This document shows, piece by piece, positions 6,204 to 22,758 of a DNA stretch of 64,000 bases. The notes under the pieces are model-generated. The model worked only from the letters and a program-made list of their open reading frames with translations. It was not told where the DNA came from and did not search any database. The DNA is from Bacteroidota bacterium (lineage in GTDB: Bacteria > Bacteroidota > Bacteroidia > B-17B0 > Aurantibacillaceae): positions 372,001-436,000 of the forward strand of contig JAJNDK010000001.1 in assembly GCA_021156365.1 (NCBI GenBank). The letters are read 5' to 3'. The position numbers were made by a program, and so were the translations under genes. The number at the start of each line of letters is the position of its first letter. Within the stretch, counting starts at the first letter, position 1.

Positions 6204-6649
6204 ATGAGTACGTATACACAAATTATATATCAGATCGTTTTCAGCACTAAAAACCGGGAACGGACCTTATCCAAAGAGAACCGTGACGAATTCTATAAAT
6301 ACATATCCGGTCTTTAGCTAATAAAAAATGTCATTTGTATAGAATCAATGGCGTGGAGGACCACATTCACATCTTAACACATGTACATCCTTCTATTGCC
6401 CTGGCTTCTCTTGTAAAGGATATAAAGATCGCGAGTGCGGAATACATTAAAAAAAAACGCTTGTTTTCCAATTTTAATAGCTGGCAGGAAGGCTATGGTG
6501 CATTTACATATTCGATCGGGGAAAAAGACGTATTAATAGAATATGTGAAAAACCAGGAAGAACATCACCAGACAAAATCGTTCCGTGAAGAATACATGGA
6601 ATTATTGAAGGAACATCAGATCGAATTTGATGAAAAATATCTGCTCTGA
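6204..6649 (+). pseudogene. REP-associated tyrosine transposase (Y1/IS200-like), frameshifted
   Basis: ATG 6204 opens MSTYTQIIYQIVFSTKNRER, the typical start of RAYT/Y1 transposases, and the frame stops at TAG 6315-6317. The rest continues in another frame from TTA 6314 (LANKKCHLYRINGVEDHIHIL). One missing base near 6312-6314 explains the break. The HUH motif is HIH in EDHIHIL and the catalytic tyrosine is in EYVKNQEEHH, so both active-site parts were once present. The four REP-like palindromes directly downstream are the expected partners of such a transposase. A single sequencing error would also produce this picture. Confidence 0.85.
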
Positions 6650-16895: not shown

Positions 16896-16913
16896 TCCCG
16901 ATAGCTATCGGGA
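16896..16913. repeat. Perfect 18-bp palindrome TCCCGATAGCTATCGGGA
   Basis: The sequence is its own reverse complement and sits in the gap between two convergent genes. It resembles other short perfect palindromes found between genes here (48529-48544). Whether it is a terminator stem or a genome-wide repeat cannot be told from one copy. Confidence 0.6.
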
Positions 16914-17028: not shown

Positions 17029-17061
17029 CTAAAGTCTGATGCCTATAACGCATACGTCATT
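17029..17061 (-). pseudogene. Detached SpoIIE-phosphatase tail, distal copy
   Basis: Read on the minus strand these 33 bases encode NDVCVIGIRL and a TAG stop, the conserved C-terminal end of the phosphatases in this window. It is 136 bases beyond the corresponding codons of the gene at 17165. Codons differ from the real gene mostly at silent positions, including AGA for CGC. Confidence 0.75.
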
Positions 17062-17196
17062 GATCCTGACGTGAAGTCAGGATGGTGACTTTGGAATCAT
17101 AGGCGAACACCTATGACACAAACGTCATCCATCCATGCGAATAGCCAGGATCGTGACTTGCAAATTATAGGCGGATGCCTATAACGCAAACGTCAT
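17042..17196 (-). repeat. 68-bp tandem repeat covering the 3' end of the SpoIIE gene
   Basis: CCTATAACG, CCTATGACA and CCTATAACG begin at 17042, 17110 and 17178, exactly 68 bases apart, and the units also share CAGGATxGTGACTT and ATAGGCG. The third unit lies over the last codons of the phosphatase gene. The first unit contains a perfect hairpin ATCCTGAC-GTGAA-GTCAGGAT (17063-17083). Confidence 0.8.
17097..17129 (-). pseudogene. Detached SpoIIE-phosphatase tail, proximal copy
   Basis: Minus-strand reading gives DDVCVIGVRL and a TGA stop, 68 bases beyond the same codons of the gene at 17165. The IGV variant matches the tail of the phosphatase at 19369-22758 more than that of its neighbour. Confidence 0.8.
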
Positions 17197-19222
17197 CGAC
17201 CTGGTAGCCCTCCCCTTTCCAGTTATTGAAATTATCCCGGATGATGGAGTACTGGTCGGACATTGGATAGCTATGTATCTTCAGCAATAATTGTTTCAGG
17301 TTCTTCGTTTTGAATTTTTTGTTCTTTTCCCCGCCAAACTGGTCCTGGTAGCCATCCGTGAAAAGGTACAATATATCGCCTTCCTGGGTTTTAATATCCG
17401 TTTTTTCAAACACGTTCGAAAGCGAAGGATAGATACCCACCGGTTTTTTATTGCCCTTGAACTCGTATATATGATTGTTGCGCAGAAGCAGTAAATTCTT
17501 ATTGGCGCCGGCAAACTGCAGGAGGTTCTTCTCCGGGCTGTATGAGCAGAAGGCAATATCCATCCCGTCCTTGATATTCTGTACATCGTCTTCACCCTTA
17601 TAGAACGAACGCTTTACTTCGTGGTTCAGGTTGTTCAGGATCTCATCCGGCTCATGGATACGGCTTTCCTTTACGATCCTGTTCAGGTGATTGATGCCCA
17701 CAATGCTCATAAATGCGCCGGGAACACCATGGCCGGTGCAATCGCCAAGAGCGAACACTATTTTCCGTTCGGGAGCATGAGTTTCATCCGGCCCGGGCTC
17801 CGTATGAAAAACTTCGCCCGAAACGACCAGCTCATATTCATTGACCACTGTTTTTGCAACCGGGGTCAAACTGATCTCTTCCAGCCAGTAAAAATCACCA
17901 CTCACAATATCGCGGGGCTGAAAAAAAACAAAGGCATCGGCAAACAGTTTCCGGAACAACTGATGCGAAGGCAACAGCGCCTTCTGTATCTTCTCTGCAT
18001 GGCGTACACTTTCCAGGAAATTCCTGTTCTTCTCAGCCAATTCGTGCTGCTGGATCTGTAAAAGCTCGTGCTGGGAACTGATCTTGCTGTTTTGCTGAAC
18101 GATCTCTTCCTTTTGCCAGCGGATCTCGGCCGTACGTTCTTCTACCTTGATCCGGAAATGATTGATATAACTGTTTATCTCAGATGCCATGTGCAGGAAA
18201 TTCTCGTTCATTTCCCTGAACTCTTTTATTTTAATTTCTTCACGGCTCACCGGAATATCTTTAAAACCACTCTCGATGTAGTTACGCATCGATGTTTTAA
18301 TGATATTCACACGTTTGGTAATGCGGCTTGCATATATATATCCAAGCACGAGGGCAATGAGGATAGAAAGAACGATCAGGCTGCTGTTGTAGATCTTCAG
18401 CTTTTTATGGAAGGAGCTTTCTATATCAACGGACTTCGCTTTTTCGGTATCGAAAAATGTATTGATATGCTCGTAATTGAGCCGGAGCTTTCTCAATACA
18501 CCCTCCCGCTCGTTGAGACCGATCTCGAATTGAAGGTTATAAAAGTCGGTAAAGTATTTTTTGTAATTGTAGGCAATATCGTGGTACTGCTTTTTCTTCT
18601 TTTTATCCTTAATAGTGGCATCGATCTCTTTTGTGAGCTCTTCATACTCCTGGTTGAATTTGTTGAAGTACTGGATATCCTTCCGGATGATGTAATCTTT
18701 CTCATGCCTGCGCAGCATGAGTGCCCGGTAATTGATCCCGTGATTCTCAATTTCCATCAGCTGGTGTGCATAATCCCGCATCCGGCCTTCTACTCCGAAA
18801 TCCTTAAAACCCTTCAGCAATACGTGTTCCTCCAGTTTCGAGAAATTAGCTGCATATTGTTTTTCCTGGATCAGCAGGGAATCAATAAGAGGTGTGATCT
18901 CGGAGTATTCATCATTCAGATTGGTGCGGACGGTTTGTAAACGGTAGATGATCTCAAAATAGTTGCTTTCAAACTCTTTTTTCACCTTGCTCTCCCCGCT
19001 CACAAAATAATTCTCGTTGGTGGTTTCATAAGAGATATAATCGTCGATCAGCTTGAAATTCTTCAGTGCCAGCACCCGGATATCATCGAGCTCGCGGATG
19101 GTGGAAGTAAGCCTGTTCTTTTGGTTATACAAATACCCGGAACCCAGGTACGTGAGCACCAGTAAAAAGATGACAACAGAAAAAACAAAAAGCAGCTGGA
19201 TCTTGAGTTGTTTGAATACCAT
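17165..19222 (-). CDS. Membrane sensor SpoIIE-type PP2C phosphatase
   Basis: About 685 residues. A first membrane helix (residues 10-30), a helical extracytoplasmic sensor of about 240 residues rich in charged coiled segments, a second membrane helix near 285-305 (SLIVLSILIALVLGYIYAS), a HAMP-like linker, a coiled coil with VEERTAEIRWQKEEIVQQ, and a C-terminal SpoIIE/PP2C domain (about 420-685) with GDFYWLEE, LGDCTGHGVPGAFMSIVG, DGMDIAFCSY and LFTDGYQDQFGGEKNKK. The metal-binding aspartates are present. Family members dephosphorylate STAS-type anti-sigma antagonists. The start at ATG 19222 (MVFKQLKIQ) is preferred to 19252 because it places the signal-anchor at the N-terminus and a -7-like GACTTTTG lies just before it. 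It is divergent from the next phosphatase. Confidence 0.88.
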   Translation of the reverse strand: MVFKQLKIQLLFVFSVVIFLLVLTYLGSGYLYNQKNRLTSTIRELDDIRVLALKNFKLIDDYISYETTNENYFVSGESKVKKEFESNYFEIIYRLQTVRTNLNDEYSEITPLIDSLLIQEKQYAANFSKLEEHVLLKGFKDFGVEGRMRDYAHQLMEIENHGINYRALMLRRHEKDYIIRKDIQYFNKFNQEYEELTKEIDATIKDKKKKKQYHDIAYNYKKYFTDFYNLQFEIGLNEREGVLRKLRLNYEHINTFFDTEKAKSVDIESSFHKKLKIYNSSLIVLSILIALVLGYIYASRITKRVNIIKTSMRNYIESGFKDIPVSREEIKIKEFREMNENFLHMASEINSYINHFRIKVEERTAEIRWQKEEIVQQNSKISSQHELLQIQQHELAEKNRNFLESVRHAEKIQKALLPSHQLFRKLFADAFVFFQPRDIVSGDFYWLEEISLTPVAKTVVNEYELVVSGEVFHTEPGPDETHAPERKIVFALGDCTGHGVPGAFMSIVGINHLNRIVKESRIHEPDEILNNLNHEVKRSFYKGEDDVQNIKDGMDIAFCSYSPEKNLLQFAGANKNLLLLRNNHIYEFKGNKKPVGIYPSLSNVFEKTDIKTQEGDILYLFTDGYQDQFGGEKNKKFKTKNLKQLLLKIHSYPMSDQYSIIRDNFNNWKGEGYQVDDVCVIGIRL

Positions 19223-19355
19223 GCAGCAAAAGTCGGCCATATACCAACCCAATAAGTTATGTAAAAGTTAGTTGAATATTAACTTCGATGAAAACGAATG
19301 AAAAGCATACTAACACTATTTTTTCCACCATTGAAGCTAATCGGAAAAAATCTCT

Positions 19356-19363
19356 TATTTTTG
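19356..19363 (+). promoter_or_regulatory. -7 box TATTTTTG of the propeller-SpoIIE gene
   Basis: Consensus TAnnTTTG six bases before ATG 19369, with TTG at 19331-19333 as a possible -33 element. It argues against the start at 19288. Confidence 0.65.
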
Positions 19364-19368
19364 GTTAT

Positions 19369-22300
19369 ATGTCTAAAGCCGTTTTTACGCTTGCCGGTGT
19401 TTTATGTATACTCGTATTACGCGCGCAACAGTTCGTTGAACCCGCTTTCAGCTACCTCGATCCCGAGAAATTCGGTGCCAACAATCTGTATCACCAGCAG
19501 TGGGATAAGCACGGTGGTATGTGGATGGCTTCCGAAAAAGGACTTGTCTATTACAATGGCTATTCTACCCAGGTATGGTCAAAAAAAGAGAACACCTCCA
19601 ATTCCCTGCTCGACAATTCCATCCAGGCCCTGTATCTCGATTCTAAAAACATTCTTTGGATCAGTTACCCGGAGATACCGGGCATTACAAAATTCGATGT
19701 TTTCAGCCATGAGATAACACATATCCTGCCCGATTCCTCCTCTCCTTCCGCTATTCCACGGGGGCGGATCGTTTGTTTCCAGGAAGATTCAAAAGAGAAT
19801 TTCTGGGTCCTGACCTGGGGCGAAGGTTTGTTTAAAATGGATCGGGAAAGCGGTACATGTATTCCCTACAAAACGAATAAAGATAAACCCGGCGACACTC
19901 ATTTTATTCCTAACAACATTGTAAAAGCCATGCTGGAGCTGAAGAACGGCAACTACCTGCTTGGCTTCTTCGAAGAATCTGCTCCTTCGGCAATGCCCGT
20001 ATACTTTGATGCAGCAAAGGGTTTATTCGAACCTTTCCCGGTAGAAGAATATCTTGCCGGACTACCAGAAGTGGAAAAAGACAAGATCCGGTTTTCGCTC
20101 AAGATCACGCATTTTATATATGAAGACACTAAGGAGAATATTTGGTTCGGGACATACAGCGGTCTTATTTGTTTCGATACAAAAAACAAAAAAGCCTCCC
20201 GTATCTCGGGTAAACAGTTTGACGCCACGCAGCAAAACCTCGACAATGCCCGCGCTTATGTACTGGATGAGAACAACCGGATGTGGATCGGCTCGCCCAA
20301 TGCAGGGATCATGCTGGTGGATCCGGAAACAAAAAAAGCGGGATACCTCCGTAATGCAACGGATAATATCTCCAGTATTGCCGATAACCGGATCCGCACA
20401 CTGAATAAAGATGCCGACGGAAACATATGGATCAGCACAGGGCTTGGAGGCTTCAGCATCTACAATCCAAGATTGCAGCAATTCAGGGTGCTGTCCTGGG
20501 AAAAGATGGATCTTGACTATAGTGATCGCTCAGGGCAAACAGTTCCGGTGAACCAGATGTTGGTGAAAGACAACGGCGAGCTCTATATCTCCAATGAAAA
20601 AGGCATCACGGTGTACGATGCATACAACGAAAAGATCCTGGAGAAAATAGATCCGGGCAAAAAGCTGAACGCGAACATGGAATTGTACATCGCTTCCCGC
20701 ATCAATAATTTCAAATTCATGCAGAACAAGCGGATATTGCTTTGCAGTCCTGAGCTTCCGGCTATTTACGATCAGGCATCCAAACAATACAAGCGTATTT
20801 CCAACCAAAGTGATTTTCCTGATAAACCGGGATTCCGCATTCTTTTCAGGCACGATAAAAGTACCCAACCGCTGTTCCTGTTCACCGGCAGGAATGGGAT
20901 CATTTACGAATACAATGAAACAACCAATACCCTGAGCGAATTCTCCCGCCTGGATAAGCGAATCCATGAAACCTATTCCTATATATTGAAAAGCGGGAAA
21001 TGGCTGCTTTGTAGCGGAGAAAAGGATTTTGTGATCTTTGATCCGATTAAAAAAAGCTTCGATGTATATGGCCCAAATCAAAAGGATCACTTTTTCCCTG
21101 ACAGCACCATCAATATAGCGATGGTAGACGCAAAAGGTATGGCCTGGTTCGGAACAGGAAAAGGACTTTATACATTCGATGAGAACACCGGGAAATACGA
21201 ATGCATGAATGCAAGGATCGGCATAAAAGAATTTCCGGTATTTGCCATCATCAACGACACTACAGGTGTGAAGTGGATCGTTTCTTCCAAAAAGCTGATC
21301 CGGTGGGATGAAAAGAACAGTTCCGTTACCATGGTCGGTAAGGACTATGGCTTGAATGCAGGATCTTTTTTCAACTCCCGTGCGCAGATCGATGCAAACG
21401 GCCATATCTATGTTGCTTCCCTGAATGGCGTGGCGGTTTTTAATCCGTATACACTACGGTTCCTCGAGCGGAAACCAAAGGTATTCCCGGATGTGATCCA
21501 GATCAACGAAGACACCCTTCATTTTACTGAAAGCAATGCCTTCACAGAAGGAAGCACAAAACTGGACTGGGATCAGAATTTCCTGAGTTTCGAGTTCCAT
21601 TCCGACCAGGTATACCTGCCTTCGCCCAACCGTTTTTATTACAGGCTGATAGGGCTCGATACAAACTGGGTGGATAACGGGAATTCCAACAAGATCCGGT
21701 ATACCAATCTTTCGGCAGGGAGCTATACATTAGAAGTGAAAGTAAAAAATGCCTACGACAAAGAAAGCGAAGTGTACCGTATCCCGTTTTTCATCGCACG
21801 GGCATTCTGGGCCACCTGGTGGTTCTACCTGCTTATCATTGTTGTCATTGCGATCGCTGTTTATTATTACATACGCCACCGCGAGAAAGAAGCAAGGCAA
21901 AGAGCAGAGCTGCTTGAACAAAGAATAGTAGAGCGCACAGCCGAAGTGGTAACCAAGGCCGAACAGATCACCCATCAGAAAGATATCATCGAAGAAAAGA
22001 ATAAAGAGCTGACCGATTCCATTCATTATGCTCTGAGGATCCAGCAATCGATCCTGCCCGAAGAAAAACAGATCGCCAAAGGCCTGCCCGAGCATTTTAT
22101 ATTTTACCAGCCCAAAGATATTGTAAGCGGGGATTTCTACTGGTACTCGCAACACGGTGATTCCATTCTATGGGCAGTAGTGGATTGTACAGGCCATGGT
22201 GTGCCCGGTGGTTTTATGAGCATGTTAGGATCTGGTTTGCTGAACCAGATCGTGAACGAAGAACACAGGCTGCAGCCGGACGATATTCTGAATCAGCTGC

Positions 22301-22758
22301 GCGAGCGCGTGATCATTGCACTGAAACAAACCGGTAAATTCGGTGAAAGCAGCGACGGGATGGATATTATCCTGTGCCGGTACCTGCCTTCCAAAAACCT
22401 TTTGCAGATGGCCGGCGCCAACAATCCTTTGTACATTATCCGCAATGAAGAGCTGATAGAGGTAAAAGGCGACAAACAACCGATCGGAGTTTACCTGGAT
22501 ATAAAAAAGCCTTTCACCCTGCAGGAAATAACAACAGAAAAAGGCGATATGCTTTATATGAACTCTGACGGATACACCGATCAGTTTGGCGGAGAGAAAG
22601 GAAAAAAATTCAAGACCTCTAATTTTGAAAAACTACTTCTTCAATTGCATAAAGAAAACATGCAAACACAGCAGATTAAGCTGGAAGCAGCGTTCAATGA
22701 ATGGAAGCGGGATATCGAACAGCTGGATGACGTTTGCGTTATAGGTGTCAGGCTCTAA
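19369..22758 (+). CDS. Beta-propeller / Y_Y_Y sensor SpoIIE-type phosphatase
   Basis: About 1129 residues. After a signal peptide (MSKAVFTLAGVLCILVLRAQ) come two-component-regulator propeller repeats (HGGMWMASEKGLVYYNG, ENIWFGTYSGLICFD, GNIWISTGLGGFSIYNP) across about 700 residues, a Y_Y_Y domain (FYYRLIGLDTNWVDNGNSNKIRYTNLSAGSYTLEVKV), one membrane helix (FYLLIIVVIAIAVYYYI), a coiled coil and a SpoIIE/PP2C domain with GDFYWYSQ, VVDCTGHGVPGGFMSML and NSDGYTDQFGGEKGKK. The layout is that of hybrid two-component sensors, but with a phosphatase instead of a histidine kinase. Start 19369 is chosen by promoter and signal peptide. The ligand is unknown. Confidence 0.9.
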   Translation: MSKAVFTLAGVLCILVLRAQQFVEPAFSYLDPEKFGANNLYHQQWDKHGGMWMASEKGLVYYNGYSTQVWSKKENTSNSLLDNSIQALYLDSKNILWISYPEIPGITKFDVFSHEITHILPDSSSPSAIPRGRIVCFQEDSKENFWVLTWGEGLFKMDRESGTCIPYKTNKDKPGDTHFIPNNIVKAMLELKNGNYLLGFFEESAPSAMPVYFDAAKGLFEPFPVEEYLAGLPEVEKDKIRFSLKITHFIYEDTKENIWFGTYSGLICFDTKNKKASRISGKQFDATQQNLDNARAYVLDENNRMWIGSPNAGIMLVDPETKKAGYLRNATDNISSIADNRIRTLNKDADGNIWISTGLGGFSIYNPRLQQFRVLSWEKMDLDYSDRSGQTVPVNQMLVKDNGELYISNEKGITVYDAYNEKILEKIDPGKKLNANMELYIASRINNFKFMQNKRILLCSPELPAIYDQASKQYKRISNQSDFPDKPGFRILFRHDKSTQPLFLFTGRNGIIYEYNETTNTLSEFSRLDKRIHETYSYILKSGKWLLCSGEKDFVIFDPIKKSFDVYGPNQKDHFFPDSTINIAMVDAKGMAWFGTGKGLYTFDENTGKYECMNARIGIKEFPVFAIINDTTGVKWIVSSKKLIRWDEKNSSVTMVGKDYGLNAGSFFNSRAQIDANGHIYVASLNGVAVFNPYTLRFLERKPKVFPDVIQINEDTLHFTESNAFTEGSTKLDWDQNFLSFEFHSDQVYLPSPNRFYYRLIGLDTNWVDNGNSNKIRYTNLSAGSYTLEVKVKNAYDKESEVYRIPFFIARAFWATWWFYLLIIVVIAIAVYYYIRHREKEARQRAELLEQRIVERTAEVVTKAEQITHQKDIIEEKNKELTDSIHYALRIQQSILPEEKQIAKGLPEHFIFYQPKDIVSGDFYWYSQHGDSILWAVVDCTGHGVPGGFMSMLGSGLLNQIVNEEHRLQPDDILNQLRERVIIALKQTGKFGESSDGMDIILCRYLPSKNLLQMAGANNPLYIIRNEELIEVKGDKQPIGVYLDIKKPFTLQEITTEKGDMLYMNSDGYTDQFGGEKGKKFKTSNFEKLLLQLHKENMQTQQIKLEAAFNEWKRDIEQLDDVCVIGVRL

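What the first reader, a model, noticed from the sequence alone, without database searches (positions are those of the whole stretch)
17029..17196. Two extra copies of a SpoIIE-phosphatase tail sit beyond the gene end in a 68-bp tandem repeat
On the minus strand the gene ends DDVCVIGIRL-TAA. Exactly 68 bases further is DDVCVIGVRL-TGA and 68 bases beyond that NDVCVIGIRL-TAG. The 68-base step is not a multiple of three, so the tails are in different frames and cannot be one readthrough product. Differences are almost all silent (TGC/TGT, GTT/GTC, GGC/GGT, CTA/CTT, and even CGC/AGA); only D/N and I/V change the protein. This pattern fits pieces of other phosphatase genes that evolved under coding selection before being cut down, for example a former tandem array collapsed by recombination. 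A slipped duplication followed by drift would not keep the amino acids so well. If related strains carry full genes here, the tails could be recombination substrates that exchange sensor ends.
Basis: partly seen in the sequence, partly recalled or inferred. Interest (0 to 1): 0.75.

Follow-up and report, generated by a model that had tools for sequence, protein, structure and literature searches.

The report
Palindromic cassettes carrying spare gene endings
The repeated gene endings are best read as copies of a tiny palindromic insertion that carries its own version of the last codons and stop of the gene it sits in, so the protein is unchanged; similar insertions turn up at many gene ends in related bacteria.

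Summary
In detail: three copies of a SpoIIE-phosphatase tail lie at an exact 68-bp step, and their differences are mostly silent. They are not remnants of other phosphatase genes. The window gene seems to carry two tandem copies of a small cassette at the codons DD|V: a replacement for the last 8-9 codons plus stop, a few bases complementary to those codons, and a hairpin. The third copy is the displaced original tail (by analogy). The same architecture stands at 8 of 48 SpoIIE genes of this genome, at 73 SpoIIE ends in 25 genomes of the family (one a single contig), and, with various palindromes, at 5 of 75 readable ends of an arginase-family gene. The extra tails mostly keep the host gene's own amino acids with other codons. 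Drift of a dead duplicate is rejected (22 replaced codons observed, 72 expected). Filled and empty sites exist in orthologs. Closest known precedent: prophage e14, which supplies the end of icd in E. coli; here the insert is usually 65-73 bp without genes. How it moves, and why the displaced tail stays protein-like, is inferred: most likely the cassette comes and goes, so that both tails take turns as the real one. Nine paper searches listed no such case.

The parts
17165..19252 (-). host gene: SpoIIE-type phosphatase, ORF of 695 aa (start codon not tested)
   Evidence: ORF; PF07228 over residues 491-690 of the stretch given, E 1.2e-22; one of 48 SpoIIE genes of the genome
17165..17197 (-). 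tail 1, DDVCVIGIRL-TAA: the tail in frame with the gene, read here as supplied by the first cassette
   Evidence: sequence; at L058 and in G061 the first tail is the copy that departs more from the unfilled ortholog; not shown directly for this gene
17130..17164 (-). spacer 1: post-stop bases partly complementary to the tail codons, then hairpin AGTCAC-ATCCTGGC...
   Evidence: 84-89% identical to the first spacers at three other SpoIIE genes of this genome and 86% to one of G002, 57-74% to three more of this genome
17097..17129 (-). tail 2, DDVCVIGVRL-TGA: tail of the second cassette
   Evidence: a like two-unit array stands at the SpoIIE gene at C8:270274
17062..17096 (-). spacer 2: hairpin AAAGTCACCATCCTGAC-ttcac-GTCAGGAT
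17029..17061 (-). tail 3, NDVCVIGIRL-TAG: last tail, read as the displaced original tail
   Evidence: by analogy: at ortholog pairs the last tail is contiguous with the native downstream sequence; not shown directly for this gene
17129..17196 (-). cassette unit 1 (68 bp)
   Evidence: repeat step, alignment of 15 units
17061..17128 (-). cassette unit 2 (68 bp)
   Evidence: repeat step, alignment of 15 units

Best explanation
The array is two tandem copies of a miniature, non-coding palindromic insertion cassette (usually about 65-73 bp) in the 3' end of a SpoIIE phosphatase gene, followed by the displaced original tail. A cassette has three joined parts: a replacement for the last 8-9 codons with stop, a short segment complementary to those codons so that tail and spacer can fold, and a REP-like hairpin. 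It sits between the codons DD and V, so the gene reads into the supplied tail and the protein is unchanged. The native tail is left out of use behind the stop. SHOWN: anatomy, recurrence in many genes, species and two gene families, gene-specific amino acids with different codons, filled and empty sites in orthologs and in one pair of contigs, tandem copies, rejection of neutral drift of the last tail. INFERRED: that the cassette moves as a unit (some spacers are shared among paralogs more closely than gene bodies are), that it is also lost by deletion between the two tails, and that this turnover exposes both tails to selection. The enzyme and the chemistry are unknown.
For: (1) Same architecture at 8 of 48 SpoIIE genes here (the eighth, L023), 2 of 63 in G002 and 5 of 41 in G021, and 73 loci in 25 genomes including single-contig G062. 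(2) An arginase-family gene: 5 of 75 readable ends, with various palindromes. (3) In 7 of 21 pairs among seven SpoIIE genes here the spacers are 84-90% identical while the bodies are 58-71% identical; tail-1 DNA follows the spacer (r 0.44; 0.56 in genus g2) better than the body (0.20; 0.19). (4) Tail 1 and last tail differ mainly by silent codons: pN/pS 0.16; neutral simulation rejected. (5) Post-stop bases complement the gene's own tail codons better than those of other loci (6.20 against 5.20 bases, 0 of 1000, n = 55) and better than shuffles (6.15 against 4.14, n = 73); 6 of 10 consensus pairs change on both sides. (6) One locus is filled in 4 species and empty in 4; G061 has a filled and an empty contig. 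(7) 12 of 73 loci have two or more units; L280 has five tails. (8) Known precedent for a supplied gene end: e14 in icd (passages of PMC6379469).
Against: No movement, excision or enzyme was observed. The other 14 of those 21 spacer pairs are only 55-74% identical, and last-tail DNA also follows the spacer better than the body (0.33 against 0.14). Cassette-bearing G072 has no Y1 transposase hit. In L384, L385, L392, L401, L414 and others both tails are identical in DNA, which looks like local duplication rather than a tail brought from outside. At L360/L363 and L384/L386 parts of the two tails change together within a species, as in local homogenisation. The hybrid pattern expected for a crossover inside the tail is clear for tail 1 (4 left, 14 right changes) but not for the last tail (9 left, 7 right) in four comparisons. 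Several last tails are decayed (L023, L038, L054, L065, L235, L416). A more lenient simulation rejects drift only just (116.5 replacement changes observed, mean 138.9, minimum 116). Loci were found partly by tail likeness, which favours conserved last tails. The consensus fold is weak (-2.77 kcal/mol).
Confidence: 0.5

Rival explanations
1. Remnants of other phosphatase genes: a former tandem array of SpoIIE genes collapsed by recombination and left the tails.
For: SpoIIE genes are numerous (48 here) and some lie close together (C7:464976-474295); the tails have a coding history.
Against: Copies end at the stop codon and share palindromic spacers. Amino acids are specific to the host gene. Also found at an arginase-family gene that gave one match per genome. 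Ortholog neighbourhoods show empty sites, not arrays.
Confidence: 0.05
2. Local duplication: a palindrome inserted with a long duplication of the gene end, or a slippage event, made two identical tails that then drifted.
For: Nine loci have tail 1 and last tail identical over 8 codons; L170 shows a palindrome flanked by 17 identical bases at a gene end; units 1 and 2 at L235 and L210 look like recent tandem copies.
Against: Loci with 1-6 differences have 22 replaced codons against 72 expected if the last tail were free to drift, and 0 of 300 simulations reached that; letting tail 1 mutate four times as often still gives 51 expected. At L058 the tails differ silently at 10 of 24 bases while the spacer is 90% identical to that of L038. 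The identity ends at or within two bases of the stop codon in identical single-unit pairs such as L384, L392, L397, L401, L414.
Confidence: 0.15
3. Both tails are translated: some ribosomes hop over the hairpins from the DD codons to the last tail, as in T4 gene 60 or Magnusiomyces mitochondria.
For: The last tail keeps an in-frame stop (67 of 73) in all three frames relative to tail 1 (23, 26, 24). It stays protein-like between species that both carry the cassette (L391/L394: 4 silent, 0 replaced codons).
Against: The codon where a ribosome would land is not Asp in 31 of 73 loci (N in 23; [quoted passage not shown] the same review notes imperfect matches in Magnusiomyces mitochondria (passages of PMC5009743). 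Tail 1 already ends the protein. Several last tails are decayed.
Confidence: 0.12
4. Mosaic gene ends: imported DNA from an orthologous gene of a related species recombined into the tail, with the palindrome as the joint; no dedicated mobile element.
For: In G061 tail 1 differs from the empty contig at 5 of 27 bases where the body differs at about 1.6 of 30; some extra arginase tails resemble tails of other species (L280 third tail is identical to that of L288 over 27 bases).
Against: Needs an illegitimate joint at the same codons in dozens of cases. Spacers with matching complementary segments and tandem copies suggest a unit.
Confidence: 0.15

Closest known systems
Prophage e14 in icd of Escherichia coli (tail-supplying integration)
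   Same: Insertion in the 3' end of a gene; the insert supplies the missing last codons; the displaced end stays as a duplicate; excision gives back a working gene with one conservative change (passages of PMC6379469).
   Different: e14 is 15 kb and displaces 163 bp (same passages); here the insert is usually 65-73 bp, non-coding, palindromic, sometimes tandemly repeated, and found at many paralogs.
REP elements, incl. the CGTC-tagged superfamily
   Same: Small palindromes downstream of genes, sometimes providing a stop codon or lying inside ORFs; reported in Bacteroidetes too (abstract and passages of PMC3733652). The G021-type spacer core CCTGAGCTTGYCGAAGG is an interspersed repeat (45 hits in G021, 0 in the reversed control).
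   Different: The passages read describe no carried copy of gene-end codons. In the window's genome a loose spacer pattern has 13 hits, 8 of them at SpoIIE ends, with 5 in the reversed control.
Rickettsia palindromic elements (RPE)
   Same: Palindromes inserted in protein-coding genes without destroying them (passage of PMC10969869).
   Different: RPEs add amino acids in frame; here the protein is unchanged because the end is supplied anew.
Coding palindromes of Nematomorpha mitochondria
   Same: Inverted repeats overlapping codons under protein constraint (abstract of PMC6649704).
   Different: The abstract describes no insertion and no displaced tail.

Membership tests
REP elements | short palindrome of about 20-40 bp | tested here: met
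   spacer hairpins; consensus pairs with changes on both sides
REP elements | high copy number in intergenic regions of the genome | tested here: inconclusive
   met for the G021-type repeat (45 hits in G021); not met for the window type
REP elements | GTAG or CGTC tag at one foot | tested here: inconclusive
   CGTC stands beside the hairpin on the plus strand, but it is the complement of the gene's own GAC-G codons
REP elements | dedicated Y1 transposase (RAYT) in the genome | tested here: inconclusive
   Y1_Tnp in 23 of 27 genomes with model hits and 34 of 60 without; absent from cassette-bearing G072 (tallied by hand, phylogeny not controlled)
tail-supplying integrative element (e14 type) | insert restores the 3' end of the target gene | tested here: met
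   tail 1 in frame with stop at 73 SpoIIE loci and 5 arginase loci
tail-supplying integrative element (e14 type) | displaced native end on the far side of the insert | tested here: met
   last tail contiguous with native downstream sequence where orthologs were compared
tail-supplying integrative element (e14 type) | encodes or is served by an integrase | not tested
   the 68-bp unit holds no gene of its own; integrases in trans were not surveyed
[quoted passage not shown]
   31 of 73 last tails do not begin with Asp
diversity-generating retroelement | adenine-directed replacement changes in a variable repeat (feature recalled) | tested here: not met
   differences are mainly silent (pN/pS 0.16)

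The most novel reading that the evidence does not exclude
These genes keep two working, differently coded 3' ends at one locus. A palindromic cassette with a coding tail is inserted and precisely lost often enough, or is bypassed, so that both the supplied and the displaced tail remain under protein selection over times in which species diverge. That would be a self-neutralising mobile element that evolves the codons of its host gene.
Probability: 0.25. Interest if true: 0.85.

Novelty: new variant of a known kind. Interest (0 to 1): 0.66.

Why it matters
It shows a way for non-coding palindromes to enter coding sequence without harm: the insert carries the missing gene end. The prokaryotic work read here places such repeats mainly between genes, or inside genes as added residues. 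The many loci with silent differences give a natural experiment on insertion, loss and codon turnover. The finding also warns annotation and codon-level evolutionary analyses: the last ten codons of many SpoIIE genes in this family may not share the history of the rest of the gene. Whether the displaced tails are still used is directly testable.

Tried and rejected

The DNA of the window array itself is narrow: 3 of 60 genomes, the window's own included, matched it. A scan of 934 ORF ends at hand (antisense frames included) found extra tails only in SpoIIE and arginase-family genes, apart from ordinary repeats in other frames (L261, L030, L063). Among the places of the 45 repeat hits in G021, only SpoIIE ends and one arginase end had an extra tail of nine codons. 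Three flagged loci (L061, L108, L409) were judged chance matches and dropped before the counts; at L388 and L371 the first, not the last, downstream match was used. Of 78 arginase loci, L336 was left out beforehand because its match stops short, and L311 and L347 run off the contig; L290 has only about 90 bases beyond the stop. The ungapped body comparison was off register for G068 and G028, so identities of that locus are taken.

Nine paper searches were counted, some of them aimed at analogues. None listed a description of recoded gene tails beside palindromes; most subscription papers are not held. Papers seen: PMC3733652 outline, abstract and passages; PMC6006769, PMC10969869, PMC6379469 and PMC5009743 passages; PMC6649704 outline and abstract.

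Full report
WHAT IS THERE. On the minus strand the SpoIIE gene of the window ends at 17165. Two further tails follow at steps of exactly 68 bases. The tail pattern is far beyond chance, and the region folds with z = -7.2. The spacers between the tails are alike, so the repeat unit is tail plus hairpin, not the tail alone.

THE SAME GENOME. A search with the 172-base array gave 10 matches, itself included, at ends of SpoIIE genes. The genome has 48 SpoIIE genes. Reading all 48 ends and looking for a second tail gave seven genes with extra tails. An eighth, decayed one (L023, C19:69329) was accepted after the model search and the wider scan. The gene at C8:270274 has a two-unit array like that of the window gene (141 of 170 aligned bases identical). 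Between L015 (window), L072, L065 and L075 the first spacers are 84-89% identical while 300 bases of gene body are 58-71% identical; L038 and L058 share a 90% identical spacer with 67% identical bodies and clearly different tails. The other 14 of 21 pairs among the seven genes have spacers 55-74% identical.

WHICH TAIL IS THE ORIGINAL. L058 encodes DDVLLIGVRV twice with 10 silent differences over 24 bases. Its reciprocal best hit in G002, at 82% protein identity, has one tail with GTA-TTG codons like the downstream copy, so the tail in frame looks like the newcomer. For the arginase-family gene of G021 (relatives G009, G015) and for a SpoIIE gene of G021 (relative G030), orthologs without the insert show the native downstream sequence joined to the last tail. 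The same holds for L280, whose fifth tail continues into sequence that aligns with tail and downstream of L287 and L288. For the window gene itself no ortholog was established, so this order is by analogy.

HOW WIDESPREAD. In G002 2 of 63 SpoIIE genes and in G021 5 of 41 have extra tails. A covariance model of 15 units hit 27 of 87 genomes of the family at E <= 0.001. Not every hit is a cassette: three of the 13 hits in the window's genome (C16:451064, C7:473647, C12:138435) have no second tail. Of 251 SpoIIE-like ORF ends read, many of them chosen because the model hit there, 76 were flagged and 73 kept, in 25 genomes, including the single-contig genome G062. Twelve of the 73 have two or more units. 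The steps from tail 1 to the next tail run from 60 to 108 with median 69 and fall in the three frames 23, 26 and 24 times.

NOT ONLY SpoIIE. At the end of an arginase-family gene (PF00491), 5 of 75 readable ends among 78 loci carry a further copy of the tail. Various palindromes lie between, and L282 keeps its own QAYQ variant in both copies. L280 has five tails about 170 bases apart.

CODING HISTORY. Over the 73 loci, 9 pairs are identical and 19 differ only silently; pN/pS is 0.16. A simulation in which tail 1 keeps only silent changes and the last tail is free, with the same score filter, expects 72 replaced codons for the 39 loci with 1-6 differences, minimum 56 in 300 runs; 22 are observed against 109 silent ones. 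For all 64 differing loci it is 72 observed against 157 expected. A cruder, more lenient simulation, with half of the changes in each tail and no filter, gave a mean of 138.9 replacement changes against 116.5 observed, minimum 116 of 1000 runs. Amino-acid identity of tail 1 with its own last tail is 7.02 of 8, against 5.88 with other loci of the genome (0 of 5000, n = 63), but base identity is only 18.95 against 17.31 of 24. Selection of loci by tail likeness inflates conservation; the low-divergence classes are least affected.

STRUCTURE. The bases after the stop complement the tail codons of the same gene. The longest run averages 6.15 bases for tail 1 and 5.45 for the last tail, against 4.14 for shuffled bases; it is 6.20 against 5.20 for tails of other loci of the genome (0 of 1000, n = 55). 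The consensus fold pairs TTATA in the tail with TATAA including the stop; six of ten consensus pairs show changes on both sides, but the consensus energy is small (-2.77 kcal/mol).

GAIN AND LOSS. At one locus, eight species have orthologs at 75-100% identity to the query among ten genomes that matched at E <= 1e-70 (40 searched). Four are filled (G072, G064, G071, G069) and four empty (G086, G068, G087, G079). G064 and its close relative G086 differ at 24 of 300 body bases. In G061 one contig has three tails and another has one; the body differs at about 1.6 per 30 bases (24 over 15 windows) and the last nine codons at 5 of 27. Whether empty means never filled or lost is not settled. Species that both carry the cassette can keep the last tail protein-like (L391/L394: 4 silent, 0 replaced codons), but L401/L416 and L366/L407 show replaced codons.

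MECHANISM. The best reading is a palindromic cassette that supplies the gene end, in the manner of prophage e14 at icd (passages of PMC6379469) but usually 65-73 bp long. I commit to turnover by insertion and precise loss as the likeliest reason for two protein-like tails (inference). Palindromes between direct repeats are known to favour deletion (recalled). Ribosome bypass is possible but fits poorly, because 31 of 73 last tails lack the Asp codon on which it would land. A Y1 transposase is a candidate enzyme only: 23 of 27 genomes with model hits have one, 34 of 60 others also do, and cassette-bearing G072 has none.

LIMITS.

Noticed in passing
window 6302-6556 (+): A Y1_Tnp (IS200/REP-type transposase) match without the profile's first 31 positions (E 1.0e-14); one of three in the genome.
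   Followed up: partly
window 19288-22758 (+): A second SpoIIE gene on the other strand, next to the first, ends DDVCVIGVRL with the same tail DNA style but no extra tail.
   Followed up: partly
window 16897-16912 (-): Palindrome CCCGATAGCTATCGGG beyond the array; the same palindrome lies inside a spacer of G021 locus L235.
   Followed up: no
L280, 2643-3350: Five arginase tails at ~170-bp steps, separated by a long inverted repeat with GCCACGAATT-type arms.
   Followed up: partly
L170 (G021:C5:27566), match region: A repeat copy flanked by 17 identical bases (CAATTAACTAATTGATT) at a gene end looks like a recent insertion with target duplication.
   Followed up: no
L053 (G000:C22:233134): A spacer-like hairpin TGTCACGATCCTGAC...GTCAGGGG stands beside what looks like a tRNA-Leu gene, not at a SpoIIE end (tRNA by eye).
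   Followed up: no
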